From Embleya scabrispora DSM 41855 (GTDB lineage: Bacteria > Actinomycetota > Actinomycetes > Streptomycetales > Streptomycetaceae): DNA of 58,809 nucleotides. Position numbers and translations under genes: made by a program. Every line of letters starts with the position of its first letter. Within the stretch, counting starts at the first letter, position 1. Positions 33,704-46,673 of this stretch are shown piece by piece. The stretch lies in assembly GCF_000372745.1 (NCBI RefSeq), contig NZ_KB889698.1, positions 1 to 58,809 on the forward strand, given 5' to 3'. The notes under the pieces are model-generated. The model did not search any database, was not told the DNA's origin, and worked only from the letters and a program-made list of their open reading frames with translations.

Positions 33704-33731
33704 CCCGTCCGAACCCCGCCCGGCAGCAAAT

Positions 33732-33779
33732 GGCCGGGCCGGCGCTCGAGGCCACTCGGCCCGGCCGGCGCTCGAGGCC
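33732..33779. repeat. Two close copies of a 22-bp GC-rich element
   Basis: GGCC(G/C)GGCCGGCGCTCGAGGCC at 33732-33753 and 33758-33779. Related elements of the type GGCCGGCGC(N)TGAGGCC occur at about 11034-11078 and, in the form CCCGTCCGGCG(C/T)TTG, at 52861-52880. It looks like a dispersed intergenic repeat family. Confidence 0.6.
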
Positions 33780-33810
33780 GAAGCAACCCGGCGGATGCGG
33801 CCCCGCCGCG

Positions 33811-34515
33811 ATGTGGCGCACGGACCGGGAGTTGGGCACCGCCTTCCCGTGCGACGGCGGCCTGACCCTGGTCCTGTTGATGCCGCCCCGAGAGCGCGCC
33901 GACGCGTTTCGCCTGGACCCGGAGGGCGAGTACGACCGCACCGTCACCCTGATGCCCGGCCTGGCCGCCCGCATCGCCGGCTGCACCCGCGCGACCAGGA
34001 TCGTGCAGGCCACCGACCTACCGTCCTACTTCCGCCACTCCACCGGCCCCGGCTGGGCCCCCGCCGGCGACGCCGGCCACTTCAAGGACCCGGTCACCGC
34101 CCAGGGCATCCGAGACGCCCTCCGCTTCGGCCGCCTCCTCGGCGAGGCGGCCGCCCCGGTACTCGGCAACCCGGAACGCCTCGACGCCGCAACCGCATCC
34201 TGGGAACACCGCCGGGACCACGAATGCCGCGAGACCTACCACTGGACCAACACCCTGGCCCGCTCCACCGCGGTCACCGCTCTCGAAGAAACCCTGATGC
34301 GCTCCATGGCCGCCCGCCCCGAAGGCTCCCGCCCCCTCCTCGACGTCTACTCGAGGATCCGAAGGCCCTCCCAACTCCTCACCCCCACAGCCCTCGCCAC
34401 CCTCCTCGCCCGCACCCTGACCCACCCGGGCGTCAACAGAGCAGCCGTCCTCCGCACAGCCCTGACCGAAGCCCGCAACCAACGAACCATCCGACACGAC
34501 CTGCGCCGGCGGTAG
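33811..34515 (+). pseudogene. Remnant of a FAD-dependent monooxygenase (C-terminal half only)
   Basis: A 234-codon frame from the ATG at 33811 encodes the C-terminal half of a PheA/TfdB-type FAD monooxygenase. It has the second FAD motif GDAGHFKDPVTAQGIRDALRFGRLLGE and the substrate-side stretch PCDGGLTLVLLMPP, but the N-terminal dinucleotide-binding domain (about 160 residues with GxGxxG) is absent and not found just upstream. A pair of repeats sits where the missing part should be, which suggests deletion next to a repeat. The Arg/Pro-rich codon use of the 3' part also fits decay. It could still be translated. Confidence 0.7.
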
Positions 34516-34924
34516 GAGCCACCACAGTCACCGAACGTCCCGTCACCAACGTCCCTCGACCCCACAATCCCGCCGTTGTACCGGGGCCTGCCGGGATTGC
34601 GGCTGCCCACCACCGGACCGGATCACGCGAGGACCCCTCAGAACCCGGCTTTCGCCGACGCCGGGCAGCGTGGAATCCATAATTCCGCACAATTTGCCAG
34701 CAAATCGTTGGGCGCATATCGGAACCCTTGATTCCGGACCGCCATCGGGCTCCTGCCGTTGCCCCGGATCGGCTTGTGCTGCCCACCAACCGATCCATAG
34801 CGTGTTTCGCGCCGGTCCGTTCGACGCCGTCCGGCACTCGACCGAGCCGCGCACATGAAGCATCTTTCTCATGGATTGTCGGATTCACCCACAATTCCGC
34901 AAGGATTCGCAGGAGAGTACAAGA
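34516..34924. other. AT-richer intergenic region before the WXG/hydrolase operon
   Basis: No supported gene. GC content falls visibly here. It holds a long-loop repeat CAATCCCG/CGGGATTG (34565-34572 and 34592-34599), an imperfect GGAAT-5-ATTCC (34672-34686), a perfect ATTTGC-CA-GCAAAT (34692-34705), and the ribosome site AGGAGAG (34910-34916) of the next gene. It is a likely regulated promoter region. Confidence 0.55.
34692..34705. promoter_or_regulatory. Operator-like repeat ATTTGCCAGCAAAT
   Basis: Perfect 6-bp arms with a 2-bp spacer in the AT-rich region 220 bp upstream of the WXG-partner gene. Confidence 0.45.
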
Positions 34925-35356
34925 ATGCCCGAACAGGAAATAGAAGATACAAATATAAATCGAATCATGTCGCCCGAATATTTTCGCACCGACCCGACGA
35001 GCGGCCCTCCCAAAAGCAACATAATTCCGCCGGCCACATCCTCACATGCCACCCTGTCGGCGCCGTCGGGTTCCTTTCAGGTCAAAATCGAAGAGTTGGC
35101 TCCGGCGGCCTCCAGGGCGGTCTCGGTGACCCAGGAGCTCAGGAGTCTCGGCGCGGATATAAATCACGGCCCGCCCCCGGGAACTCCGGGTTTCATGACC
35201 GGCTTCCAACTGGGCGAACTCAGTCGTGAGTGGGGCGGCGCGATCGCCCATCTCGCGGATCTGGCGCAAGCGGCGGCCGATAAAATCTACCGAACTCGGA
35301 CGAAATACGCCGGGACCGAATCCAACGTTGCCACCAACTTTACGCCGGGGTCATAG
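34925..35356 (+). CDS. Small WXG100-like protein with type VII secretion features
   Basis: 143 residues from the ATG at 34925, with AGGAGAG 8 nt upstream. After a polar N-terminus, two amphipathic helices (QVKIEELAPAASRAVSVTQELRSL and GELSREWGGAIAHLADLAQAAADKIYR) are joined near W103-G-G105, a WXG motif placed later than usual. Y128-AGT-E132 after the second helix matches the YxxxD/E export signal of ESX/type VII substrates. The next gene starts 2 nt after the stop and carries its own WXG domain, so the two probably form the heterodimer that type VII systems export. Base composition is lower in GC than the flanks. No type VII machinery is in the window. Confidence 0.65.
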   Translation: MPEQEIEDTNINRIMSPEYFRTDPTSGPPKSNIIPPATSSHATLSAPSGSFQVKIEELAPAASRAVSVTQELRSLGADINHGPPPGTPGFMTGFQLGELSREWGGAIAHLADLAQAAADKIYRTRTKYAGTESNVATNFTPGS

Positions 35357-35358
35357 CC

Positions 35359-37038
35359 GTGGTCACTTTCGCAGAGCTCAGAGGCGCGAACTTCGAAAGC
35401 TGGCGAGAATCCGCCCGTATGTGGAAGACAACAGCCGCCAAGCTGACCGAGCTGGAGAATGCCTTCAGAACCGGGGTCAACGACGGAGTCGAGACGGCCG
35501 GATGGAAGGGGCAGGCGGCCGGGACCGCGGACCAGGAACTCGAGCAGACGGTTCGGCAGATCGCCATCTCGGCGAGTCAGGCCCAAACCATCAGCACTGC
35601 AACCGATCGCGCGGCGACCGAACTCCCCGCGATTCAAACCACTTTCCGATCGGCGATCCAGGAGGCCGAAGCCGCAGGACTCCGAGTGATCGAGAACCCC
35701 GGCGGATACACCGTGCAGGCGGCGGTGACCGGGGAACCCGGTAACCTCAGTCCGGCAGATTCGGCAAAACAGCAAAGCGCAATCGACGGCTATGTTGCCC
35801 GGTTCAATACACTCCTGCGCCAGGCGAATGAAGCCGACTCGAAATTCGCTGCGGTCATGGCCACATTGCTGCCGGGCGACGTCGCGGAGACTCGGCTGGA
35901 TTCCTGGCAGAACAGCACCGAAGACACCCAGCGTGTAGCCGGCCTGTACGGCGTCGGGCCCGTTCCGAAACTTGATCCCGCGCAGACGGCGGGCTGGTGG
36001 AATGGGCTATCCGATGAGCAGCGGGCCATGTATTTGGCCGCTTATCCAAAACAGCTGGGAAGTACGGACGGCCTGCCGGCAGCCGTCCGCGACAAGGCAA
36101 ATCGCACGGCTCTGGACCAACGCTTGACCGAGCTGTCACCGGCACTGGCCGGCGGCAAATCTCCCAATCATGACAAACGCGAATGGGAGAACCTCACGGA
36201 GATCAAGAAGCAATTGGTCGCCGGCTACGCTCGTCCGACCGGTCGGGAATTACTGCTACTCAAGTTCGGTGACAAATTCCTCGACGGCCAGGTAATCATG
36301 TCCGTCGGCGATCCCGACAAAGCAAAGCATGTCTCCATCTCAGTTCCCGGTACCGACTCGACCGTTGTGGACACTCTCGAGGGTGGAATCAATCGAATAA
36401 ATGCCATTCAGGAGACCGCAGACACCCTGACACCGGGTGGGCACAGCGATTTGGCGTCGATCTTCTGGCTCGACTACGACGCTCCCGAACAAGGCGGAAG
36501 CATGGCCGGGTGGGATCGCTCTCGGGAGGGGGCGCCGCGGTTGGACTCCTTCGTCAACGGGGTGCGCGCCCAGGGGAATGATCAGCACCTGACGGTGGTC
36601 GGTCACAGTTACGGGACAGCATTGGTCGGCGATGCGGCAAAAGCCGGAAACGGGTTGGCCGTCGACGACATCGTTTCCCTGGGCAGCCCCGGGATGCACG
36701 TCAAGCGGGCTCAGGACTTGCACATGGATCCAGCCCACGTGTGGGCCGAGCGCGCAACGGGTGCGTCGGTGGACACGGCCGTGGTCGACGGCGGGAAGGT
36801 ATCGCACGGCACCGACCAGAAACCGGGCGGCCGCAGCGTCTTCGACATCCTGAGGGGAGGCCCCGGCGATCGAGTCACACCGACGGACACGGCTTTCGGC
36901 GCCAACATCATGCGCGGGGACGCACACGGCCACAGTGCGTACTGGAATCCCGGGAGTGAAAGCCTCATCAATCAGACCAAAGTCGTGATCGGCGCATACA
37001 ATGACCCAAATCAATCCAAACGGCCACAACTTCAATAG
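35359..37038 (+). CDS. WXG domain-alpha/beta hydrolase (DUF1023) fusion, candidate type VII secreted lipase/esterase
   Basis: 559 residues from the GTG at 35359, 2 nt after the partner gene. Residues 1-~130 form a WXG100-like helical hairpin with W49-K-G51 (ETAGWKGQAAG). Residues ~280-545 are a DUF1023 alpha/beta hydrolase: nucleophile elbow G415-H-S417-Y-G419 (VVGHSYGTALVG), the preceding SIFWLDYDAPEQGG, and a late H525 (HGHSAYW) that fits the catalytic His. There is no Sec signal; export by a type VII system is inferred from the WXG domain and the partner gene. Substrate is unknown, with phospholipids or other esters plausible. A lipoprotein gene overlaps or follows directly. Lower GC than the flanks suggests acquisition. 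Confidence 0.8.
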   Translation: MVTFAELRGANFESWRESARMWKTTAAKLTELENAFRTGVNDGVETAGWKGQAAGTADQELEQTVRQIAISASQAQTISTATDRAATELPAIQTTFRSAIQEAEAAGLRVIENPGGYTVQAAVTGEPGNLSPADSAKQQSAIDGYVARFNTLLRQANEADSKFAAVMATLLPGDVAETRLDSWQNSTEDTQRVAGLYGVGPVPKLDPAQTAGWWNGLSDEQRAMYLAAYPKQLGSTDGLPAAVRDKANRTALDQRLTELSPALAGGKSPNHDKREWENLTEIKKQLVAGYARPTGRELLLLKFGDKFLDGQVIMSVGDPDKAKHVSISVPGTDSTVVDTLEGGINRINAIQETADTLTPGGHSDLASIFWLDYDAPEQGGSMAGWDRSREGAPRLDSFVNGVRAQGNDQHLTVVGHSYGTALVGDAAKAGNGLAVDDIVSLGSPGMHVKRAQDLHMDPAHVWAERATGASVDTAVVDGGKVSHGTDQKPGGRSVFDILRGGPGDRVTPTDTAFGANIMRGDAHGHSAYWNPGSESLINQTKVVIGAYNDPNQSKRPQLQ

Positions 37039-37048
37039 GGCACACCTC

Positions 37049-37621
37049 GTGACTGGTCACCGCTTCCTCGCCAAGTTCACTGCGCTTTCGGTGGTGATTC
37101 TGTTGTTGGGCTCGATTTCGGCATGTGGAGGTTCAGTGAAAGAAAATGATGTAAAAATCCCCAAGATGTCGGAAGAGCGGGCCAAATCGGTCGCCGAGGA
37201 ATACGGAAGGCGAATCGTCGAAGGCATCGGAGCTCCTAAAGTGGAGCGCAAACCGTCGTCCAGTGCTTCTCCATGCGGAAACGTCATGGAAGGAAAGGAT
37301 TCCACGCAACATCACTTCTGGATGAAGCACGTCCAGAACGTCGTCGTGTCCCCGCAGGAGCAGGTGGCAACGTACCTTCGGGCTCGGACCGTCATTGAGG
37401 GCATGGGTTTCAAGATCCGAGACTTCGCCACCGACACGAGTGCGAGCGGAGGCGCCGGTAGATTGCGTGCAATGAACTCCGCCGACGGCTTTTCCATCGC
37501 TCTGGAAACGACCACTCCATCGGAGGAAATCATGATCATGATTTCCAGCCCGTGTCTGGAGCGGCTGCCCGAATGGGAGGGTGACGTCTCGGCGGGGCCC
37601 AGTGCCGGGCGGACTCCCTAG
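37049..37621 (+). CDS. Lipoprotein downstream of the WXG-hydrolase (candidate immunity protein)
   Basis: 190 residues from the GTG at 37049; an ATG at 37001 inside the hydrolase gene is in frame but would put ~16 extra residues before the signal. Signal peptide VTGHRFLAKFTALSVVILLLG ends in the lipobox SISAC, giving a lipid-anchored Cys. The mature part (about 165 residues) has two further cysteines (SPCGNV, SSPCLER) that may form a disulfide. No enzyme motif is seen. It lies at the outer face of the membrane. The order effector then lipoprotein is reminiscent of staphylococcal TslA/TilA, where a lipoprotein neutralises a type VII lipase; immunity here is an inference. Confidence 0.75.
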   Translation: MTGHRFLAKFTALSVVILLLGSISACGGSVKENDVKIPKMSEERAKSVAEEYGRRIVEGIGAPKVERKPSSSASPCGNVMEGKDSTQHHFWMKHVQNVVVSPQEQVATYLRARTVIEGMGFKIRDFATDTSASGGAGRLRAMNSADGFSIALETTTPSEEIMIMISSPCLERLPEWEGDVSAGPSAGRTP

Positions 37622-37708: not shown

Positions 37709-38719
37709 TCAGCGCGCCAGCGCCGGGAGCACTTCCTTGCCCAGTCGGGTCACGTTCTCCAGGGTCATCGATGGCACGCCCGCGCCCTCGGCGAACAGGA
37801 GGAAGCGGGTGATGCCCGTGCGCTCGGTGGTGCGGGAGAGGCGGCGGACGCAGTCGGTCGGTGAGCCGACCGGGTGAATGCGACACAGGAAGTCGGTGTA
37901 CTCGTCGGGGTCGCGCATGTGGCGTTGGCGGTCGTCCACGGTCACGTGCGCGGACAGGCCCCGGCGCAGCCACCGCGGCATCGCGCTCCGCAGGGTGTCG
38001 GTAGCCTCACGGCGGGTGTCCGCGACGTAGGCCACGCTCGCGGCGGCGTGCTCGACCGCCTTGGGGTCGCGGCCGCACGCGGACGCGGCGCATTCGTAGG
38101 TGCGGACCATCGCGGCCTTCTCGGCGTCGTCGGCGTGCATACCCAGCAGCATCGGCAGCCCGTGTCGGGCGGCCAGTGAGGCGCTCTCGCGCGAGGTGCA
38201 GGCCAGGATCACCGGCGGGTGCGGGTAGGTGCGCGGGCGTGGCACCACGGGCACCTTGCGGAACGCGAAGTGTTCGCCCTCCGCGCCCACCCGCTGGTGG
38301 GTGAGCCAGCGCATCAGCAGATCCAGCGATTCGGGGAAGGCGTCGTCGTATCGACGCAGACCGGTGCCGAAGACCTCCAGATCCACCCATGGCCCGCCGC
38401 GCCCGACGCCCAGGGTGAATCGGCCTCCGGAGAGTTGGTCCAGCAGGGCCGTCTGCTCACCGAGAGCGACCGGGTGTTGATCGGACAGCACGCTGATGGC
38501 CGTCCCCACCCCGATTCGGTGCGTACGCCCCAGTAGCATGGAGGCGAAGGTGACCGCCGACGGGCACAACCCATACGGCACGAAATGGTGTTCGGCGATC
38601 CACGCCTCGTCGAACCCGGCCTCCTCCGCGGCGATTCCCGCGTCCATGGCAGCGGTGAGCACCTCACCGTGATCGCCCGCGTCGAACTGTGCCGCCAGCA
38701 GGAAGATGCCCAACTTCAT
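37709..38719 (-). CDS. LLM class flavin-dependent oxidoreductase (luciferase-like monooxygenase)
   Basis: 336 residues from the ATG at 38719, with GAGGAGGA upstream. TIM-barrel bacterial-luciferase fold: MKLGIFLLAAQFDAGDH at strand 1, AGFDEAWIAEHHF, then LLDQLSGGRFTLGVGRGG, and PVILACTSRESASLAARHGLPMLLG in the flavin-binding C-terminal half. Probably uses FMNH2 or coenzyme F420; the residues that tell these apart cannot be judged by eye. Substrate unknown. It is transcribed alone, divergently from the 3-hydroxyacyl-CoA dehydrogenase gene. Confidence 0.87.
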   Translation of the reverse strand: MKLGIFLLAAQFDAGDHGEVLTAAMDAGIAAEEAGFDEAWIAEHHFVPYGLCPSAVTFASMLLGRTHRIGVGTAISVLSDQHPVALGEQTALLDQLSGGRFTLGVGRGGPWVDLEVFGTGLRRYDDAFPESLDLLMRWLTHQRVGAEGEHFAFRKVPVVPRPRTYPHPPVILACTSRESASLAARHGLPMLLGMHADDAEKAAMVRTYECAASACGRDPKAVEHAAASVAYVADTRREATDTLRSAMPRWLRRGLSAHVTVDDRQRHMRDPDEYTDFLCRIHPVGSPTDCVRRLSRTTERTGITRFLLFAEGAGVPSMTLENVTRLGKEVLPALAR

Positions 38720-38920
38720 CGCGTCCTCCTCGTCGTGTCCCCGTCGGCCCTGCGGCCGGATCGGGCCGACGGCGGCGGAGCGGGACGTGGGGCGGGGCGC
38801 CCACAGACAACACAACGCTCGAACGACCTCAGAGGTAATCCTTCACCGCTGATGGTTTTCCACCCGAACGAGCGGCTATCGACAAGGCGGCGCCATCGCG
38901 CGACCGCCGAGGCGAATGCT

Positions 38921-38948
38921 CGAACACATACCCGAACACATATTCGGG
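38921..38948. promoter_or_regulatory. Direct repeat CGAACACATA x2 overlapping inverted repeat CCCGAA-6-TTCGGG
   Basis: The direct copies are at 38921-38930 and 38933-38942; the perfect inverted repeat spans 38931-38948. It lies 200 bp upstream of the LLM gene and about 150 bp upstream of the dehydrogenase gene, so it may control either. Confidence 0.5.
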
Positions 38949-39027
38949 ACGGACCGAGGCGAACGGCACATCCCACCGACCTGTGCCTGTCCGACAGGGG
39001 CTGCCATACTCCTGGGACCCCGCGGTA

Positions 39028-39041
39028 CTACTTCGCAGTAA
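39028..39041. promoter_or_regulatory. Weak member of the TACC/T..GTAA operator family: CTACTTCGCAGTAA
   Basis: TACT-4-AGTA symmetry 54 bp before the dehydrogenase start. The spacer differs from the other copies, so it is the least certain site. Confidence 0.4.
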
Positions 39042-39095
39042 CCAAGGCGTACTCCCGCTGGGGAGACGCCATTTCAGCAGCGAGGAGCACAGCAG

Positions 39096-40871
39096 ATGAC
39101 CCGTGACATCAGCACGGTCGGCGTGGTCGGCCTGGGCACCATGGGCGCCGGCATCGTCGAGGTCCTGGCCCGGGCGGGAATCACCGTCGTGGGCGTGGAC
39201 GTCTCCGACGAGGCCATCGCGCGTGGCCGGGCCCGGATCGCCGAGTCGACCGCCCGCGCCGCGGCGCGCGGGAAGCTGACCGAGGACCAGCAGCGAGACA
39301 TCTTCGATCGCATCACCCTCGGCACCGACCTGAGCTCGGTCGCCGCAGCGGACCTCGTCCTGGAGGCGATACCGGAGCAGCTGGAGCAGAAGCAGGAGCT
39401 TTTCGCCCAGCTCGACAAGATCTGTGGGCCGGAGACCATCCTGGCCACCAACACCTCCTCACTGTCGGTCACCGAGCTGTCGGTGTCCACCACGCGCTCC
39501 TCGCGCGTGGTGGGACTGCACTTCTTCAACCCCGCGCCGGTGATGAAGCTGGTCGAGGTGGTCCGCACGGTGGTCACCGAACCCGAGGTGCTCGCCGATG
39601 TGGTCGCGCTCGCCGAGCGGCTGGGCAAGTCGCCGGTGGTGGCCGGTGACCGGGCCGGGTTCATCGCCAACGGGCTGCTGTTCGCGTACCTCAACCACGC
39701 GGCGTCGATGTACGAGCAGAAGTACGCCACCCGCGAGGACATCGACGCGGCGATGCGCTTCGGCTGCGGTCTGCCGATGGGGCCGCTCGCGGTGCTCGAC
39801 CTGGTCGGGATCGACACCGCGTACGAGATCCTGGAGCAGATGTATCGCCAGTCGCGCGATCGCCTGCACGCACCCGCGCCGATCCTCAAGCAGATGCGTA
39901 CCGCGGGCCTGCTCGGGCGCAAGAGTGGTCGCGGCTTCTACACCTACGAACAGGCCGGTTCGCCGGTCGTGGTGGCCGAGGCCGGCGGGTCCGCGGCCGT
40001 CGCCGGCACGCCGCGCGACGTGCGCGCGGTGGGCGTGGTGGGCACCGGGACGATGGCCACGGGCATCGTCGAGGTGTTCGCCAAGTCCGGCTACGACGTG
40101 GTCTACGTCGCGCGCAGCGAGGAGAAGGTCGAGCGGGTGCGCGCGGCGCTGGTCCGCTCGCTGGACAAGCAGATCCAGCGTGGCCGGCTGACCGAGGAGG
40201 CCAAGGCGGACGCGCTGGCCCGGGTGGTCGGCTCGACCCGGCTCGACGACCTGGCCTTCGCGGACCTGGTCGTGGAGGCCGTTGTCGAGGAACTGTCGGT
40301 CAAGCAGGCCCTGTTCGAGAACTTCGACGAGATCTGCAAGCCCGGCGCGGTGCTGGCCACCACCACCTCCTCGCTGCCGGTGATCGACTGCGCGGTGGCC
40401 ACCTCGCGGCCCGGTGACGTGGTCGGCATGCACTTCTTCAACCCGGCGCCGGTGATGAAGCTGGTCGAGGTCGTTCGTACGGTGGCCACCTCGGACGATG
40501 TGGTGGCCACCATCCACGAGGTCTGTCGGCGGACCCGCAAGCACGCGGTGGACTGCGGCGACCGCGCGGGCTTCATCGTCAACGCGCTGTTGTTCCCGTA
40601 CCTGAACGACGCGGCGCGCATGCTCCAGGCCAACTACGCGACGGCCGAGGACATCGACACCGCGATCAAGCTGGGTGCCGGTTACCCGATGGGCCCGTTC
40701 GAACTGCTCGACGTGGTCGGGCTGGACGTCTCGCTGGCCATCCAGAAGGTGCTCTTCGCCGAGTTCCGCGAGCCGGGCTGGTCGCCGGTGCCGCTGCTGG
40801 AGCACCTGGTCACGGCGGGCTACCTCGGCCGCAAGACCGGTCGCGGCTTCCGGGACTACGCGAAGCGGTAG
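39096..40871 (+). CDS. Tandem (two-module) 3-hydroxyacyl-CoA dehydrogenase
   Basis: 591 residues, made of two complete HBDH-type modules (residues ~1-283 and ~308-591) joined by a short Ala/Gly linker. Module 1 has GLGTMGAG for NAD binding and GLHFFNPAPVMKLVEV with the catalytic His; module 2 has GTGTMATG and GMHFFNPAPVMKLVEV. Each ends with a C-terminal dimerisation domain (MGPLAVLDLVGID, MGPFELLDVVGLD, then GRKSGRGFYTYE / GRKTGRGFRDY). It oxidises 3-hydroxyacyl-CoA, or reduces acetoacetyl-CoA to 3-hydroxybutyryl-CoA in the reverse direction. The fused form is common in Streptomyces. It ends in a T-tailed terminator. Confidence 0.93.
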   Translation: MTRDISTVGVVGLGTMGAGIVEVLARAGITVVGVDVSDEAIARGRARIAESTARAAARGKLTEDQQRDIFDRITLGTDLSSVAAADLVLEAIPEQLEQKQELFAQLDKICGPETILATNTSSLSVTELSVSTTRSSRVVGLHFFNPAPVMKLVEVVRTVVTEPEVLADVVALAERLGKSPVVAGDRAGFIANGLLFAYLNHAASMYEQKYATREDIDAAMRFGCGLPMGPLAVLDLVGIDTAYEILEQMYRQSRDRLHAPAPILKQMRTAGLLGRKSGRGFYTYEQAGSPVVVAEAGGSAAVAGTPRDVRAVGVVGTGTMATGIVEVFAKSGYDVVYVARSEEKVERVRAALVRSLDKQIQRGRLTEEAKADALARVVGSTRLDDLAFADLVVEAVVEELSVKQALFENFDEICKPGAVLATTTSSLPVIDCAVATSRPGDVVGMHFFNPAPVMKLVEVVRTVATSDDVVATIHEVCRRTRKHAVDCGDRAGFIVNALLFPYLNDAARMLQANYATAEDIDTAIKLGAGYPMGPFELLDVVGLDVSLAIQKVLFAEFREPGWSPVPLLEHLVTAGYLGRKTGRGFRDYAKR

Positions 40872-40944
40872 AGCGGTACCGGGCCGACGCGGGTCGGCCG
40901 GGAGTCGGCGGACGCGAGTCCGTCGAAGGTGGGTGGTACGAGAG

Positions 40945-40984
40945 GGGTACGGGCGTGCGCACCGCGTGCACCCGTACCCTTTTT
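40945..40984 (+). terminator. Rho-independent terminator after the tandem dehydrogenase
   Basis: Arms GGGTACGGG (40945-40953) and CCCGTACCC (40971-40979) are followed by TTTTT (40980-40984). The next gene's start codon is 4 bp further on, so the same DNA must also carry or adjoin that gene's promoter. Confidence 0.85.
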
Positions 40985-40987
40985 GGT

Positions 40988-41287
40988 GTGCCGCGTCGTA
41001 ACAAGCCCACCAGCCGCTCCCGGACCGTGGACCGGGACGAACCCCGCGACCCCAGCCTCGGCTTCGAGGAGCGCGAGTCGGGGGCCGACGGGGAATGGCT
41101 GGTGCGACCGATCAGCGGTCAGGCGGCGACCAAGACCTATCGCTGTCCCGGGTGCGACCACGAGATCCCGCCGGGCGTGCCGCACCTGGTCGCGTGGTCC
41201 GCGGACGGGCGGGTCGAGGAGCGCCGGCACTGGCATCGCCCGTGCTGGAACAGCCGCGGGCAGCGGCGGATCACCCGGCGACGGTAG
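40988..41287 (+). CDS. Small basic protein with CPGC...H..CW zinc-site pattern (annotated ATP/GTP-binding in relatives)
   Basis: 99 residues from the GTG at 40988; an upstream GTG at 40955 lies inside the terminator hairpin and is unlikely. Basic and polar. It carries YRCPGCDHEIPPGVPHLVAW and, later, RRHWHRPCW, a Cys2-His/Cys pattern that suggests a structural zinc site. It resembles a short conserved Streptomyces protein usually labelled ATP/GTP-binding protein, though no P-loop is visible. No ribosome site precedes the start, so a leaderless message is possible. It overlaps the 3' end of the opposite-strand gene by 17 bp. Function unknown. Confidence 0.7.
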   Translation: MPRRNKPTSRSRTVDRDEPRDPSLGFEERESGADGEWLVRPISGQAATKTYRCPGCDHEIPPGVPHLVAWSADGRVEERRHWHRPCWNSRGQRRITRRR

Positions 41288-41723
41288 GCGCCGCGTCCCG
41301 ACCCGTGGCCATCCGCCGACCGGCCGGACGCCGGGGGCGGGTCACCAGCGTCGCGGTGAGCAGCAGCGCCAGGGCCGGCAGGGTCACCGCGAGCACGAGC
41401 GGGACGAGCAGCGCGACCGCCGAGGCCGCGACATGCAGAGCGGCCGCGCCGATCACGCCGACCCGGGCGGACGAGCCGGCGTGCAGCCGATCGCGCAGGT
41501 TGCGCACCGCCCACACCGACCAGATCACGATCACCAGGCCGAGCAGGGCGAAGAAGGCGATGCCCAGGGCGCTCACCAACGGCCGACTGTCCACCTCCCG
41601 GTCCCGCGAGACGCGCAGGACCAGCATCGGCGCGACCACGCCACAACAGACGACCGCCGCCACCACCTCGGCGCACAAGGTCACGATGGCCGCGTACGTC
41701 ACGATGCCCCGGGTCAACGTCAT
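41271..41723 (-). CDS. Four-helix membrane protein of unknown function
   Basis: 150 residues from the ATG at 41723. Hydrophobic segments: IVTYAAIVTLCAEVVAAVVCCGVVAP, LVSALGIAFFALLGLVIVIW, VGVIGAAALHVAASAVALLVPLVL and LPALALLLTATLV. The C-terminus is basic. I do not recognise the family. It is convergent with the small zinc-site gene, with 17 bp of overlap. Confidence 0.65.
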   Translation of the reverse strand: MTLTRGIVTYAAIVTLCAEVVAAVVCCGVVAPMLVLRVSRDREVDSRPLVSALGIAFFALLGLVIVIWSVWAVRNLRDRLHAGSSARVGVIGAAALHVAASAVALLVPLVLAVTLPALALLLTATLVTRPRRPAGRRMATGRDAAPTVAG

Positions 41724-41960
41724 AAGCCGCGATCGTGCCCGCTGGGCGCGGGTTTGTCGAGAGTGCGTTCGAGTCGGCGTGGGGAACACCGGTCGGGTAC
41801 GACGGGCCGGACGAACCCGGTGGAGCGTGTCCGGCGCAACGGCCCCGCCGCCTCGCCCGGGTGAACCCGGGTCCGGGCGGGCCGATCGGGGCCGTCCGGA
41901 CCCGTCGGCGCGGTCGCCTGGCCCGGGTTCGCCGGGTTCGCTCTCGGGGCCGCCGGCCCC

Positions 41961-43451
41961 TCAGGTCCGTCGCCCGAAGCGCAGCGAGACGTAGCGGTCG
42001 AGCAGCTTCATGGTGCCCCGCGTGCGGGTGAACGACGCGGGCTCCATCGGCGTCTTGAACAGCCGTCGGGTGATCGATTGCGGGCGGGCGAATTCGCGCA
42101 GCCCGTCCGCGCCGTGGATCCGCCCGAAGCCGCTCCCGCCGACCCCGCCGAACGGCAGCGCCGGAATGCTCGCGAAGGCGATCACCGCGTCCACCGACAC
42201 CATCCCGGTTCGCAGTCGCCGAGCGATCTCCACACCCAGCCGGCCGGTCCGGGCGAACACCGCCGCGCCCAGGCCATAGCCAGTGCCGTTGGCCAACCGC
42301 ACCGCCTCGTCCAGGTCCTCGACCGTGCGTACCGAGATCACCGGGCCGAACGTCTCCTCGCGGGCCACGCCGCTGTCGTCCGGCGCGTCCACGAGCACGA
42401 CCGGGTCGATGTACGGCGGTCGTACCGCGCCGACCCCACCCACCACCGCCGTCGCGCCGCCGGCGATCGCCTCGTCGATGTGCCGACGCACCACCTCGAC
42501 CCGGACCGGCATGGTCATCGGCCCGTACGCGCCGCCCGGTTCATCGGGTGGCACCAAGTCCGCGATTCCAGCACGGAGTTCGTCCAGGAACTCGGCCTTG
42601 ATCGAGCGCTGGACGAAGACCCGCTCGATCCCCACGCAGGTCTGCCCGGCGTTGGAGCGCGCGCCCCACAGGGTGGCGTCGGCGGCTTCCTTGACGTTCG
42701 CGCCCGCGCCGACGATCAGCGCGTCCTTGCCGCCGCACTCCATCAACACGGGTGTGAGGGTGAGCGCGCACGCGGCCATCACTTTGCTGCCGGTGGCAGC
42801 CGAGCCGGTGAAGGCCGGCTTGTCCACGCCGGCCCCGCACAGTGCGGCCCCCGTCGAGCCGTCGCCGGTGACCACCTCGAACACGCCCGCCATCGCGTCC
42901 GGATTGGCCCGGGCGAACGCGTCGGCCAGGAACACGCCCACGCCCGGGGTGAATTCGCTCGGCTTGAACAACACCGCGTTGCCCGCCGCGAGCGCGTAGG
43001 CGATCGAGCCCAGTGGAGTGAACACCGGGTAGTTCCACGGTCCGATCACGCCGACCACACCGAACGGCCGGTACTCCAGGTACGCCGCGTGGTTGGCCAT
43101 CGCCAGGCCGGCGGGCACTCGGCGACGGCGCAACACCCGCGCGGCGTGCGCCGAGGCCCAGGCGATGTGCTCCAGGCCCAACAACAACTCCAGGAACGCG
43201 TCGTCGTGCGGTTTGCCGGTCTCGTCGTGGATCAGCGCCCCCAACGCGTGCCGGCTTCGCACGATTTCGGCCGCCCAGGCGCGCATTCGGCGGCGCCGCT
43301 CGACGGGCGGGAGGCCGGCCCACCAGGCGCCGCCGACCCGGGCCCGATCCACCGCCGCGCGCACGTGCCCGGCGTCGTGGATCGGGTAGCGGGCCAACTC
43401 CTTGCCGGTGGCCGGGTCGAAGGATGCGAAGGTCTCCATGGTCGTGGTCAC
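41961..43451 (-). CDS. Aldehyde dehydrogenase family protein
   Basis: 496 residues; the GTG at 43451 overlaps the stop of the upstream CoA ligase gene (GTGA), with a second start at ATG 43440. All ALDH features are present: PWNYPVFTPLGSIAYALAAGN for the fold, FTGSAATGSKV for NAD binding, general base in MECGGKDALIV, nucleophile in NAGQTCVGIERV, and the C-terminal ETFGPVISV and PFGGVGGSGFGR motifs. It resembles the fatty-aldehyde / coniferyl-aldehyde-type branch (about 470-500 residues). With the coupled CoA ligase it probably forms an aldehyde to acid to acyl-CoA channel. Substrate unknown. Confidence 0.9.
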   Translation of the reverse strand: MTTTMETFASFDPATGKELARYPIHDAGHVRAAVDRARVGGAWWAGLPPVERRRRMRAWAAEIVRSRHALGALIHDETGKPHDDAFLELLLGLEHIAWASAHAARVLRRRRVPAGLAMANHAAYLEYRPFGVVGVIGPWNYPVFTPLGSIAYALAAGNAVLFKPSEFTPGVGVFLADAFARANPDAMAGVFEVVTGDGSTGAALCGAGVDKPAFTGSAATGSKVMAACALTLTPVLMECGGKDALIVGAGANVKEAADATLWGARSNAGQTCVGIERVFVQRSIKAEFLDELRAGIADLVPPDEPGGAYGPMTMPVRVEVVRRHIDEAIAGGATAVVGGVGAVRPPYIDPVVLVDAPDDSGVAREETFGPVISVRTVEDLDEAVRLANGTGYGLGAAVFARTGRLGVEIARRLRTGMVSVDAVIAFASIPALPFGGVGGSGFGRIHGADGLREFARPQSITRRLFKTPMEPASFTRTRGTMKLLDRYVSLRFGRRT

Positions 43452-44989
43452 CGCCGGCTCGTCCTCTCTCGCAGCACGGACTTCTGCACCTTGCCGGCCG
43501 CGGTCAGCGGCAGCGCGTCGACGAACTCGACGCTCCTGGGCGCCTTGTAGCCGGCGATCAACGTCTTCACATGGACCCGGAGCAGATCGGCCGTCAGTTC
43601 GCGGCCCGGATGCAGCACCACGACGGCGTGTACACGTTCGCCCCAGGTGGGGTCGGGCAGGCCGATCACGGCGCAGCCGGCGACGTCCGGGTGTGCGTTC
43701 ACCGCGTTCTCGACCTCGGCGCTGTACACGTTCTCCGCGCCCGTGACGATCATGTCCTTGAGCCGGTCCACCACGGTGATGTAGCCCTCGGCGTCCATGA
43801 AGCCCAGGTCACCGGTATGCATCCAGCCGCCGCGCAGCGCCTGTGCGCTCTCCTCCGGCCGGTTCCAATACCCCAGCATCACGTGGTCCCCGCGCGAGAC
43901 GATCTCGCCGACCTCGCCGCGCGCGAGTTCCCGCTCGTCCGGGCCGACGATCCGTACGTCCGCGTGGTAGCAGGGCCGGCCCGCCGAGCGCAGCTTCACC
44001 GGGTCCGCGTCCAGGTGGTCCTGCGGCGCCAACAGCGTCGCCAGTGGCGAGAGTTCGGTCTGGCCGTAAGCCTGGATCAGAGCCGTACCGGGCAGCGCCT
44101 TGAGCACCCGGTCGAGCAGCGTGGCGGTGATCGGCGACGCGCCGTAGGTGAGCAGTCGCAGCGAGGAAAGGTCGTACCGGGCGAAATCCGGGTGCTCCAG
44201 CACCATTTGCAGCATCGTCGGGGCAAGGAAGACCTCGGTGACGCATTCGTGCTCGATGGTCGCGGCGACCTGTTCGGGGTCGAAGAACGGCAGCACCACC
44301 TGCGGTATGCCGACGATCGAGGTCATCAGCGACACCCCGAACCCGGCGATGTGGAACAGCGGGGCCGCGTGCAGGACGCGGGCATTGGGCGCGAGCCGGT
44401 AGGCGGCGGTGGCGACCAGGCCGCCCATCGCGGAGGCGAGCAGGTTGTCGTGCGAGAGCATCACGCCCTTGGGGAATCCGGTGGTCCCGCCGGTGTAGAA
44501 GATTCCGGCGAGGTCGTCGCCACCGCGGTTCGCGTCCGGGATCGGCTCGGCCGCGGCGAGCAGCGCCTCGTAGTCGTGCGTTCCGGGCCCGGTGGGCGCG
44601 TTGCCCATGTGCACGATCTCGCGCACGCTCGACGAGGCGGCGCGCAGCGTGGGTACCAGACCGGCGAACGCGTCGTCGACGATCAGGACGCGGGTCTGCG
44701 AGTCGTCCAGCGAGAAGGCGATCTCGGCCGCGCTCCAGCGGATGTTCACCGGGTTCAGCACGCCGCCGGCCCACGGAATCGCGCTCAGACACTCCAGGTA
44801 GCGGAACGAGTTCAGGCCCAGGATCGCGACCCGATCGTCGGGCGCGACACCCAACCCGCGCAGCGCGCCGCCGAGCCTGGCCACCCGCTCGCGCAGCTCG
44901 TGGAACGTGGTGCCCACGTCGCCGTCGAGCACCGCCGTGCGCTCCGGTGTCTGTTGGGCCCATCGGTGCAACGGCTGGGTGATGCCCAT
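43448..44989 (-). CDS. AMP-dependent acyl-CoA synthetase (long-chain fatty acid-CoA ligase type)
   Basis: 513 residues from the ATG at 44989, preceded by AGGAGCAGTCC. Adenylate-forming motifs: P-loop YTGGTTGFPKGVMLSH (A3), YGQTELSP (A5), HTGDLGFMDAEGYITVVDR (A7) and the C-terminal PLTAAGKVQKSVLR with the catalytic Lys (A10). It activates a carboxylic acid to acyl-CoA via acyl-AMP. It is translationally coupled to the aldehyde dehydrogenase downstream, so the pair probably works on the same carbon chain. The upstream 258 bp are very GC-rich with short tandem repeats and hold no gene. Confidence 0.93.
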   Translation of the reverse strand: MGITQPLHRWAQQTPERTAVLDGDVGTTFHELRERVARLGGALRGLGVAPDDRVAILGLNSFRYLECLSAIPWAGGVLNPVNIRWSAAEIAFSLDDSQTRVLIVDDAFAGLVPTLRAASSSVREIVHMGNAPTGPGTHDYEALLAAAEPIPDANRGGDDLAGIFYTGGTTGFPKGVMLSHDNLLASAMGGLVATAAYRLAPNARVLHAAPLFHIAGFGVSLMTSIVGIPQVVLPFFDPEQVAATIEHECVTEVFLAPTMLQMVLEHPDFARYDLSSLRLLTYGASPITATLLDRVLKALPGTALIQAYGQTELSPLATLLAPQDHLDADPVKLRSAGRPCYHADVRIVGPDERELARGEVGEIVSRGDHVMLGYWNRPEESAQALRGGWMHTGDLGFMDAEGYITVVDRLKDMIVTGAENVYSAEVENAVNAHPDVAGCAVIGLPDPTWGERVHAVVVLHPGRELTADLLRVHVKTLIAGYKAPRSVEFVDALPLTAAGKVQKSVLRERTSRR

Positions 44990-45163
44990 GGACTGCTCCT
45001 CGCGTCGGAGGGGAGGTAGAAGTGCGGGCGTGCGGGCGCGGAACCGGGGGTGCCGGGCGGCCGGTGCCGGGCGGCCCGGCGGCGGGTGTCCGGGGCCCAG
45101 GGCCGGTGTCGGGTGCCCGGTGTCCGGTGCGGCGTCTCGGGGTCGCCGGCGGACGGCGAAGCC

Positions 45164-45195
45164 GCCTGGATGCGGAGGCGCCTGGATGCGGAGGC
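45164..45195. repeat. Perfect tandem duplication of a 16-bp unit
   Basis: GCCTGGATGCGGAGGC at 45164-45179 and 45180-45195, in the GC-rich spacer between the CoA ligase start and the SCO5389-like stop. Confidence 0.8.
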
Positions 45196-45247
45196 GCGGG
45201 CACGCCGCCGAGGCCCGCCCGCGCCGCCGAAGGGTTCCGCCGCGGTG

Positions 45248-45640
45248 TCAGCAGTCGCGCAGCGTCGGCGACTGGTTGAGCAGTTGGCCTCGAATCGAGG
45301 TGAACTTGGCGTACCGGTCCGCGTCCAGGCCCTCGACCGGGAAGACCGCCACGCGGTGGCAGTTCTGGAACGCCAGCTTGACCCCGAAATGCCGTTCCAT
45401 CGAGCCGCGAATCGCATCCGAGGCCAACGCGCGCAGCAGTTGCCCGCGCTCCGTCTCGGTGCCGGGCGGCACCTGGTTGTCCGCGAACGGCCCGCCGTCC
45501 ACCTGGAGCTGCGTCACCAGCGAGGAGACGAGATTCCAGGCGTAGGGCAGCGAGGTACGCACACAGTCGACGAACTCGGCCTCGTCCACGTCACCGCGTT
45601 CGGCCTGTTCCAACAGCTTCGCAGGCACATCGAGCGACAT
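45248..45640 (-). CDS. SCO5389 family protein
   Basis: 130 residues from the ATG at 45640 (SLDVPAKLLEQAERGDVDEAEFVDCVRTSLPYAW), preceded by GGAGCACC; the frame runs further upstream but this is the conserved start. The sequence closely matches a small, highly conserved Streptomyces protein (FADNQVPPGTETERGQLLRALASDAIRGSMERHFGVKLAFQNCHRVAVFPV, ending QLLNQSPTLRDC) that sits next to nucS. Biochemical role unknown. It is divergent from nucS, which fits the known neighbourhood. Cytoplasmic. Confidence 0.88.
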   Translation of the reverse strand: MSLDVPAKLLEQAERGDVDEAEFVDCVRTSLPYAWNLVSSLVTQLQVDGGPFADNQVPPGTETERGQLLRALASDAIRGSMERHFGVKLAFQNCHRVAVFPVEGLDADRYAKFTSIRGQLLNQSPTLRDC

Positions 45641-46013
45641 CGGTGCTCCTTCCGGCCGGGCGTACGCAAGTTCGCCCGGCGGTTCGGGTCGTGTCTCGTA
45701 CGTGGCAGGTGGCGCCCATGCCTCGATCACGACGCGCCCGAACGCCCATCCGCCCGACCCGCACCGTCTCCTGACTCACCGTAGGACATCGGGCACACGT
45801 TGCTCCATAGCGAACGGTCGGCGAACCCGCCGCGCGGCCCCTCCGGCGCGGTGGCCACGGCCTGCACCGGTTCGGGCGTGCCCCGGAGTGCGTTCGCGAC
45901 GTCCCGCTCGGTTTCGCGTCGGTCGAGGGTGAGTGATGAGGTGCGTCACACGAGTCGTGCCCGCGCCTCGGGGGTGGCCGAGGGAGGTGCTTCGGAGGCG
46001 GTAGCGTCGGGGC
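45641..46013. other. Divergent promoter region between SCO5389-like and nucS genes
   Basis: No supported gene or clear repeat. Frames here lack ribosome sites and codon character. It must hold both promoters. Confidence 0.6.
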
Positions 46014-46673
46014 ATGCGTCTCGTCATCGCCCGTTGCTCCGTGGACTACGTCGGGCGACTCACCGCCCACCTGCCGTCCGCCCCCAGGCTCATCCTCGTC
46101 AAGCGGGACGGAAGCGTGTCCGTGCACGCCGACGACCGCGCGTACAAGCCGCTGAACTGGATGAGTCCGCCGTGCACCCTCAAGGAGGGGGACGGCGTGT
46201 GGACGGTGATCAACAAGGCCGGCGAGAAGCTGATCATCACGATCGAGGAAGTGCTGCACGACACCTCGCACGAACTGGGTGTCGACCCCGGCCTGGTCAA
46301 GGACGGCGTGGAGGCACACCTTCAGGAACTGCTGGCCGACCGGCTCGACGCACTCGGCGCCGGCTGGACGCTGATCCGCCGCGAGTACCCGACACCGATC
46401 GGCCCGGTGGACATCCTGTGCCGGGACGCGGACGGCACCACCGTCGCGGTCGAGATCAAGCGCCGCGGCGAGATCGACGGCGTCGAGCAACTCACCCGCT
46501 ACCTGGAACTGCTCAACCGGGACACCCTGATCGCCCCGGTCAAGGGCGTCTTCGCCGCGCAGGAGATCAAGCCCCAGGCCCGCGTGCTGGCGGTGGACCG
46601 GGGCATCACCTGCGTGACCCTGGACTACAACGCGCTGCGCGGCACCGAGGACGACAAGCTGAAGCTGTTCTGA
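46014..46673 (+). CDS. nucS: Mismatch-specific endonuclease NucS
   Basis: 219 residues. N-terminal DNA-binding domain ([38 protein letters not shown]) and C-terminal RecB-like nuclease with D133 (PVDILCRD), E147 and K149 (VAVEIKRRG) and the [12 protein letters not shown] helix. The C-terminal peptide LKLF is a beta-clamp-binding-like end. NucS (EndoMS) cuts both strands at mismatches and is the core of the non-canonical mismatch repair of actinobacteria that lack MutS/MutL. It is followed by a long-loop hairpin. Identification is certain at family level. Confidence 0.96.

What the first reader, a model, noticed from the sequence alone, without database searches (positions are those of the whole stretch)
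34925..37621. Candidate type VII secreted lipase with WXG partner and lipoprotein immunity
Three coupled genes: a WXG protein with a YxxxE export signal (W103-G-G105, Y128..E132), a protein with its own WXG hairpin (W49-K-G51) fused to a GHSYG alpha/beta hydrolase, and a lipid-anchored protein. The layout parallels S. aureus TslA/TilA, where a type VII lipase is neutralised by a lipoprotein, but with the domains in the opposite order and from an unrelated hydrolase family (DUF1023). The unit is lower in GC than its surroundings and follows a gene remnant, so it may be mobile. It would be a new class of actinobacterial effector-immunity set.
Basis: partly seen in the sequence, partly recalled or inferred. 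Interest (0 to 1): 0.8.

Follow-up and report, generated by a model that had tools for sequence, protein, structure and literature searches.

The report
Secreted lipase toxin with immunity lipoprotein
Three neighbouring genes of a soil actinobacterium look like a set for fighting other bacteria: an export helper, a probable fat-cutting enzyme that is sent out of the cell, and a membrane-anchored protein that probably protects the producer; similar sets occur in other actinobacteria and may explain a mycobacterial lipoprotein family called LppA.

Summary
The three genes are real and at the stated place (partner 34925-35356, DUF1023 hydrolase 35359-37038, lipoprotein 37049-37621, all +), in an Embleya genome with ESX genes. 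The layout recurs: of the 80 best of 575 relatives, 70 (one spurious) have a lipobox ORF just downstream, against 11/241 off-module ORFs and 0/30 ORFs after Tox-REase-2 toxins. Lipoprotein divergence tracks the hydrolase domain and partner divergence the N-terminal domain (69 loci). The N-terminal domain also occurs with other C-termini (Tox-REase-2, amidase, DUF6973). Lipoproteins can form tandem arrays. The lipoprotein's predicted fold matches M. tuberculosis LppA best (tied with DUF4853), and 10 of 11 LppA-family genes examined lie in clusters with DUF1023 genes. Best reading: a type VII polymorphic effector-immunity set acting at the envelope. Corrections: the domain order is the usual one (TslA is the reversed case); W103 is probably not a WXG hairpin; two sister genomes carry the set at the same place, so recent mobility is unsupported; it is a recurrent set, not a class first seen here. 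Some relatives lack the lipoprotein. Enzyme substrate, export and protection are inferred, not shown.

The parts
34925..35356 (+). Gene A: 143-aa partner (probable EsxB/EspC-like type VII targeting partner) with C-terminal YxxxE (Y128-E132)
   Evidence: ORF and sequence; family profile best matches EsxB in the PDB, E 7.3e-5 (two of its 30 rows are in a wrong frame); 11 of 30 and 10 of 30 rows match EspC PF10824 and WXG100 PF06013 at E 0.1; gene A itself matches neither
35359..37038 (+). Gene B: 559-aa effector; N-terminal helical targeting domain fused to an alpha/beta hydrolase
35359..35898 (+). Gene B residues 1-180: N-terminal type VII domain with W49-K-G51, also found with other C-termini; boundary approximate
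   Evidence: weak WXG100 score 10.9 bits; profile hit to EsxA 3zbh E 0.014; profile of this part found in 76 of 80 relatives; other C-termini
36259..37035 (+). Gene B residues 301-559: DUF1023 / Abhydrolase_8 domain, S417 in GHSYG, probable acid D472, H525
   Evidence: PF06259 118 bits, residues 310-468; S417 and H525 invariant in 44 rows; D472 is inferred by eye from the alignment
37049..37621 (+). Gene C: 190-aa lipoprotein, probable immunity protein, LppA-like fold; lipobox Cys26, further conserved Cys76 and Cys169

Best explanation
The trio is a type VII (ESX) polymorphic effector-immunity set. Gene A, an EsxB/EspC-like helical protein with a C-terminal YxxxE signal, pairs with the N-terminal helical domain of gene B and takes it to the ESX machine (inferred). 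B's DUF1023 serine hydrolase domain acts outside the cytoplasm, most likely as a lipase or other esterase on membrane or envelope lipids of competing bacteria (inferred). Gene C, a lipoprotein anchored on the outer face of the producer's membrane, binds the hydrolase domain and blocks it (inferred). Shown here: gene structure, families, recurrent linkage, the double dissociation of divergence, exchange of the C-terminal domain, tandem lipoprotein arrays, an LppA-like fold of C by prediction, and ESX genes in the same genome.
For: Linkage: lipobox ORF downstream in 70 of 80 relatives (one spurious) against 11 of 241 control ORFs, same regex; 73 of 80 by a looser regex; 0 of 30 after Tox-REase-2 toxins; 0 of 8 after short DUF1023 genes. 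N-domain profile in 76 of the 80; an upstream ORF called in 71 of 80. Co-divergence, 69 loci: lipoprotein with hydrolase domain given N-domain 0.66, with N-domain given hydrolase 0.26; partner with N-domain given hydrolase 0.58, with hydrolase given N-domain 0.07; reached by 0, 0, 0 and 65 of 500 permutations. The order held in 300 of 300 half-samples (smallest lipoprotein difference about 0.00), and the values were 0.71/0.005/0.44/0.06 after thinning to 21. Domain exchange: N-domain with Tox-REase-2 (L019), DUF6973 (L014, own genome), Amidase_6 (L166), DUF6571 (L153). The nuclease-fold chimera L019 has a downstream protein without a signal. Tandem lipoproteins after one hydrolase: G003 three, G026, G445 and G403 two, G407 two or more; LppA three and two in G153. 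Identity to two sister genomes: C 52-56%, B 75-76%, A 79-83%. Tail [YF]xxx[DE] in 41 of 70 partners, shuffles mean 16.2, max 30. Own genome: EccC 789.8 bits and two WXG100 genes within 8 kb of it.
Against: No assay of lipase activity, export, toxicity or protection exists here. Gene A has no Pfam hit to a type VII family, and B's WXG100 score (10.9) is below cut-off. Two hydrolases in the sister genomes (L012, L013) have no lipoprotein next to them, and those genomes hold no further family member beyond the two beside other hydrolases; L007's first downstream protein has no signal. L030, L050, L057 and L084 of the 80 lack a lipobox protein. L039, L040, L056 and L073 have a lipoprotein but no recognisable N-domain, so the pairing is not bound to this N-domain. 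In a phylum sample 7 of 12 assessable long DUF1023 genes had a lipobox neighbour by regex. The lipoprotein also keeps some correlation with the N-domain (0.26). The 80 loci are the best matches to the query and some come from one species, so they are not an even sample. Co-divergence cannot tell an inhibitor from an activator. The structure of the hydrolase could not be predicted (tool off).
Confidence: 0.7

Rival explanations
1. Gene C is a membrane-anchored foldase, activator or anchor for the exported hydrolase (as Lif is for Pseudomonas and Burkholderia lipases, recalled), and the enzyme serves nutrition or envelope remodelling.
For: Such a helper would also lie next to the lipase, be membrane-anchored and co-diverge with the hydrolase domain.
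Against: Tandem divergent copies after one hydrolase; hydrolases with the catalytic residues but without it (L012, L013); lower identity between sister genomes than the enzyme; the same N-domain carries other C-termini with other downstream proteins.
Confidence: 0.14
2. The unit is a type VII toxin-immunity set, but the DUF1023 domain is not a lipase: it cleaves another ester or amide bond in the cell envelope. (Overlaps with the best explanation in all but the substrate.)
For: The hydrolase part found no solved relative by sequence profile; of four papers that name DUF1023 passages of two were seen, with no biochemistry; alpha/beta hydrolases have many activities (PMC11878206, abstract start).
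Against: Only a weak similarity to the Tle3 phospholipase model (E 0.023; 5 of 14 rows, best 0.013), which points to lipids but is not significant.
Confidence: 0.3
3. An ESX substrate aimed at eukaryotes (protozoa, fungi, plants) or at the cell's own envelope, with gene C merely limiting self-damage.
For: ESX systems of pathogenic mycobacteria are known for host interaction (PMC10730906 introduction, passage seen).
Against: Exchangeable C-termini, including a nuclease-toxin fold and an amidase, and lipoprotein arrays.
Confidence: 0.12

Closest known systems
S. aureus TslA/TilA with TlaA1/TlaA2 (PMC10730906; abstract, results section 6, discussion and passages read)
   Same: Exported lipase, small helical partners, lipoprotein immunity next to the toxin domain, several immunity lipoprotein genes at the locus
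   Different: TslA has the lipase first and the targeting domain last; TilA is DUF576; window gene C has no Pfam match and an LppA-like fold; one partner gene, not two
LXG toxin clusters of Bacillota, e.g. TelC/TipC (PMC6193138, passages read; cluster order from PMC10730906 discussion)
   Same: Order partner - toxin - immunity; immunity domain on the outer membrane face for an envelope-acting toxin; several immunity paralogues
   Different: TelC is a lipid II phosphatase; TipC is held by a transmembrane helix
Tox-ABhydrolase-3 of Zhang et al. 2012 (PMC3482391, 12 of 52 passages seen)
   Same: Predicted lipid-acting alpha/beta hydrolase toxin with GHSxG, listed with T7SS (WXG) among its export routes and Actinobacteria among its hosts
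   Different: Listed immunity Imm66 and Imm69; DUF1023 is not named in the held part of that paper, so identity of the two is unknown
LppA family PF16708 (2v7s)
   Different: About 10% identity; gene C is not matched by PF16708; searches (0 papers; 15 of 187 listed, mostly other LppA or other meanings) showed no immunity role, which is not exhaustive

Membership tests
Abhydrolase_8 (DUF1023, PF06259) | Score above Pfam's cut-off | tested here: met
   118 bits against 20.5
Abhydrolase_8 (DUF1023, PF06259) | Nucleophile Ser in GxSxG and catalytic His kept | tested here: met
   S417 and H525 invariant in 44 of 44 rows
Type VII polymorphic effector-immunity set | Small partner gene upstream with C-terminal Y/FxxxD/E | tested here: met
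   Y128xxxE132; family 41 of 70, shuffles mean 16.2
Type VII polymorphic effector-immunity set | N-terminal WXG/LXG-type helical domain | tested here: inconclusive
   W49-K-G51 present; WXG100 10.9 bits, below cut-off; one of 14 rows E 3.1e-7; EsxA profile hit E 0.014; W.G at that place in 18 of 71 relatives, [WLF].G in 51 of 71
Type VII polymorphic effector-immunity set | Same N-domain with exchangeable toxin domains | tested here: met
   Tox-REase-2, DUF6973, Amidase_6, DUF6571
Type VII polymorphic effector-immunity set | Specific immunity gene 3' of the toxin, co-diverging with the toxin domain | tested here: met
   that the protein gives immunity is not tested
Type VII polymorphic effector-immunity set | ESX-dependent export, toxicity, neutralisation | not testable with these tools
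   needs experiments
WXG100 (PF06013) or EspC (PF10824) for gene A | Score above Pfam's cut-off | tested here: not met
   No hit for gene A at E 5, although 10 and 11 of 30 rows of its family alignment match at E 0.1
LppA (PF16708) for gene C | Match to the Pfam model | tested here: not met
   No Pfam family for the 206-aa frame at E 5, nor for the 190-aa form at E 0.1
LppA-like fold for gene C | Same fold and alignable profile | tested here: met
TslA/TilA | C-terminal targeting domain; DUF576 immunity | tested here: not met
   The helical domain is N-terminal; gene C has no Pfam hit

The most novel reading that the evidence does not exclude
The window's lipoprotein and the mycobacterial LppA family are one large actinobacterial family of immunity lipoproteins against ESX-exported DUF1023 lipases; that gives LppA-type lipoproteins a function and implies that actinobacterial (T7SSa) ESX systems, known mainly for host interaction, also carry out fighting between bacteria.
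Probability: 0.4. Interest if true: 0.85.

Novelty: new variant of a known kind. Interest (0 to 1): 0.6.

Why it matters
If right, it joins three poorly understood things into one testable system: DUF1023 hydrolases, the small ESX-type partners beside them, and LppA-like lipoproteins. It would suggest a function for a structurally solved mycobacterial lipoprotein and make the question whether actinobacterial ESX systems serve competition between bacteria directly testable in harmless soil strains.

Tried and rejected
Mobility of the trio: not supported for recent times, as it sits at the same place in G001 and G002; older transfer is possible, and the third sister genome G003 has only a 41% relative on another contig. 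Foldase reading of gene C: disfavoured by tandem arrays and losses. DUF4853 context: PF16145 rang in 0 of 296 genomes and in no control genome, so nothing could be learnt. Sequence-only link of gene C to LppA: alignment A3, which holds a mycobacterial LppA row, reached 2v7s at E 0.0013, but A4 without mycobacterial rows did not; the link therefore rests on fold and profile-profile comparison. Tox-REase-2 as a same-N-domain control: 0 of 30 loci carry this N-domain, so only L019 tests that directly. The N-domain count (119 of 150 genomes) is inflated, because query residues 200-300 also match the short DUF1023 proteins.

Rows dropped and limits: in A2 the rows L005 and L006 are in a wrong frame, and A2 was still used. 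The co-divergence test used 69 of 80 loci (hydrolase of 500 aa or more, partner ORF of 90 aa or more, lipoprotein ORF; L084 left out). No partner ORF was called in 9 of 80 loci, in most of which the hydrolase start used was too far downstream. Two of 13 LppA rows below the Pfam cut-off (L112, L113) were left out of the 10 of 11. The 20 regions were picked to favour non-hydrolase C-termini, so their proportions mean nothing; L151 and L154 were not scanned in Pfam. The regex prefers a lipobox ORF where several ORFs compete, which favours the module slightly; the same preference was used. In one search one of 24 loci (L229) gave no frame, L220 (296 aa) had no downstream ORF, and L233 and L234 ran off the stretch; these were not counted. 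Among further short DUF1023 genes the regex flags L015, inside a frame that reads like an acyltransferase membrane protein; it is outside the 0 of 8. L278-L283 were fetched and not analysed.

Papers: PMC10730906 abstract, section 6, discussion, passages; PMC3482391, PMC6193138, PMC11878206, PMC8467076, PMC9363015, PMC12419801 passages; all others as search listings only. Searches for prior reports; the titles and abstract starts listed there (capped lists in 25, 79, 112) show no DUF1023 effector with a lipoprotein immunity partner, within the open library held. Mycobacterium tuberculosis gene names remembered for similar trios (Rv2798c-Rv2797c-lppV, Rv2542-lppA-lppB, Rv0963c-lprP) are recalled, not tested.
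Full report
What is there. The finding holds at sequence level. The window lies in an 11.39 Mb genome of the same genus as G001, whose contig carrying the trio has the length of an Embleya hyalina contig, 504,692 bases; so the genus is Embleya (inferred from this match). Gene A (34925-35356, 143 aa), gene B (35359-37038, 559 aa) and gene C (37049-37621, 190 aa from GTG 37049) lie head to tail with gaps of 2 and 10 bases. B is a DUF1023/Abhydrolase_8 protein (118 bits, cut-off 20.5) with the nucleophile motif GHSYG (S417) and an invariant H525 (44 of 44 rows); the acid is probably D472, read by eye from the alignment. C has a signal with lipobox ISAC and two further cysteines, C76 and C169, kept in 90% or more of 56 rows.

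Is the pairing chance? By one regex 70 of 80 have a lipobox ORF just downstream, against 11 of 241 ORFs elsewhere in the same loci; one of the 70, in L084, is a spurious ORF. By a looser regex it is 73 of 80, with a median gap of 10 bases; in L053 and L093 a lipobox is visible by eye, in L090 by the first regex. L030, L050, L057 and L084 remain without one. With the first regex, ORFs after Tox-REase-2 toxins in the same bacterial family gave 0 of 30 and ORFs after short DUF1023 proteins 0 of 8. In an even phylum sample, 7 of 12 assessable long DUF1023 genes have such a neighbour by regex (L212, L221, L225, L226, L227, L231, L232; L223 by eye as well), while L222, L224, L228 and L230 do not. 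Within Embleya there are exceptions: the L012 and L013 hydrolases have no lipoprotein next to them, and the first downstream protein of L007 has no signal, though two further family members with lipoboxes follow it. Of the 80, 76 carry a recognisable N-domain; L039, L040, L056 and L073 do not and still have the lipoprotein.

What belongs to what. If C guards against B's enzyme and A serves B's export, C should diverge with B's C-terminal part and A with its N-terminal part. In 69 loci, partial rank correlations of distances were 0.66 (C with hydrolase, given N-domain), 0.26 (C with N-domain, given hydrolase), 0.58 (A with N-domain, given hydrolase) and 0.07 (A with hydrolase, given N-domain); 0, 0, 0 and 65 of 500 permutations reached these values, so C keeps a smaller link to the N-domain as well. 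With mature lipoprotein sequences the values were 0.69, 0.25, 0.59 and 0.07; the order held in 300 of 300 half-samples, with a smallest difference near zero for C, and after thinning to 21 loci they were 0.71, 0.005, 0.44 and 0.06. This is the strongest evidence here. It shows matched pairs; it does not by itself show inhibition.

Export. The family of A gives EsxB as the best solved structure by profile (E 7.3e-5); 11 of 30 rows match EspC and 10 of 30 WXG100 at E 0.1, though A itself matches neither. An acidic residue in the tail column is kept in 67 of 70 rows, and [YF]xxx[DE] occurs in 41 of 70 tails against 16.2 on average in shuffles. B's W49-K-G51 fits a WXG hairpin; the Pfam score is weak (10.9 bits), one of 14 rows is significant (3.1e-7), and the profile of B reaches EsxA at E 0.014. 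The own genome holds a full EccC (789.8 bits) and two strong WXG100 genes within 8 kb of it. In a Mycolicibacterium plasmid the gene before the hydrolase is annotated 'type VII secretion target'.

Polymorphic toxin. The N-domain of B occurs with other C-termini: Tox-REase-2 in a Streptomyces decoyicus plasmid (L019), DUF6973 in the own genome (L014), DUF6571 (L153), Amidase_6 (L166), and some without a useful Pfam name (L150, L152, L155, L156, L167). Downstream, by the same regex: L019 has a protein without a signal; L014, L153, L155 and L156 have lipoproteins; L150, L152 and L166 have hydrophobic but lipobox-free proteins; L167 gave none. The lipoproteins of L153, L155 and L156 show no profile match to C (0.1%). 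A signal-less neighbour for a toxin that must act in the cytoplasm and lipoproteins for hydrolases fit immunity at the site of action; with this N-domain the nuclease case is a single one.

Immunity-like behaviour of C. Tandem related copies follow one hydrolase in G003 (three), G026, G445 and G403 (two) and G407 (two or more); in G003, G445 and G403 the first copy has no lipobox by regex. C is the least conserved of the three genes: 52-56% identity to the sister genomes against 75-76% for B and 79-83% for A; a flanking gene has 94.8% in G001. Both resemble what the TslA and TelC papers describe for TilA and TipC (PMC10730906 section 6 and discussion; PMC6193138 passages).

Mobility. The trio stands between homologous flanks in G001 and G002 (left flank 85-87%, main right-hand piece 87% and inverted; trio 73% at DNA level). 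Most simply, it was present in their common ancestor. The lower GC is a trait of the whole family (68 of 80 hydrolases and 74 of 79 lipoproteins are lower than their flanks) and is no sign of recent arrival.

Verdict. A type VII effector-immunity set is the best reading (0.7); the lipase label is less certain. It is a new variant of a known kind, recurrent in actinobacteria. The bolder reading, that LppA-like lipoproteins form one immunity family and that actinobacterial ESX systems serve competition, is not excluded and is given 0.4.

Noticed in passing
G000:C145, L014 / L169 (own genome): Second type of set: same N-domain fused to DUF6973, with a partner ending in YARTE upstream and a different lipoprotein downstream.
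   Followed up: partly
G000:C169, L002 / L010 (own genome): A paralogous trio (partner, DUF1023 hydrolase, lipoprotein) at 33-38% identity to the window's hydrolase.
   Followed up: partly
L019 5989-7272: Streptomyces decoyicus plasmid protein with the N-domain, the first stretch of the DUF1023 domain and then Tox-REase-2, as if the toxin domain had been exchanged inside the hydrolase.
   Followed up: partly
L001, L015-L018, L213-L219: A second class of short DUF1023 proteins (about 400 aa in most) without the partner-lipoprotein layout; in Embleya followed by a frame that reads like an acyltransferase membrane protein (my reading, no call).
   Followed up: no
window 37718-46673: This block is inverted relative to G001 and G002, with a breakpoint right beside the trio.
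   Followed up: partly
window 33704-34669: Between the left flank and the trio the two sister genomes carry other frames (they read like oxidoreductases, in one also a MerR-like regulator; my reading), so this gap is variable.
   Followed up: partly
L233, L234 (G053, G238) and G077: DUF1023 domains inside very long open frames (4,990 and 20,955 aa); G077 has four matches in one 4,292-aa frame.
   Followed up: no
L172, L257, L258: In three arrays the first lipoprotein-family gene after the hydrolase has no lipobox by regex while later copies do.
   Followed up: no
L039, L040, L056, L073: Hydrolases with the downstream lipoprotein but without a recognisable N-domain; they may use another export domain.
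   Followed up: no
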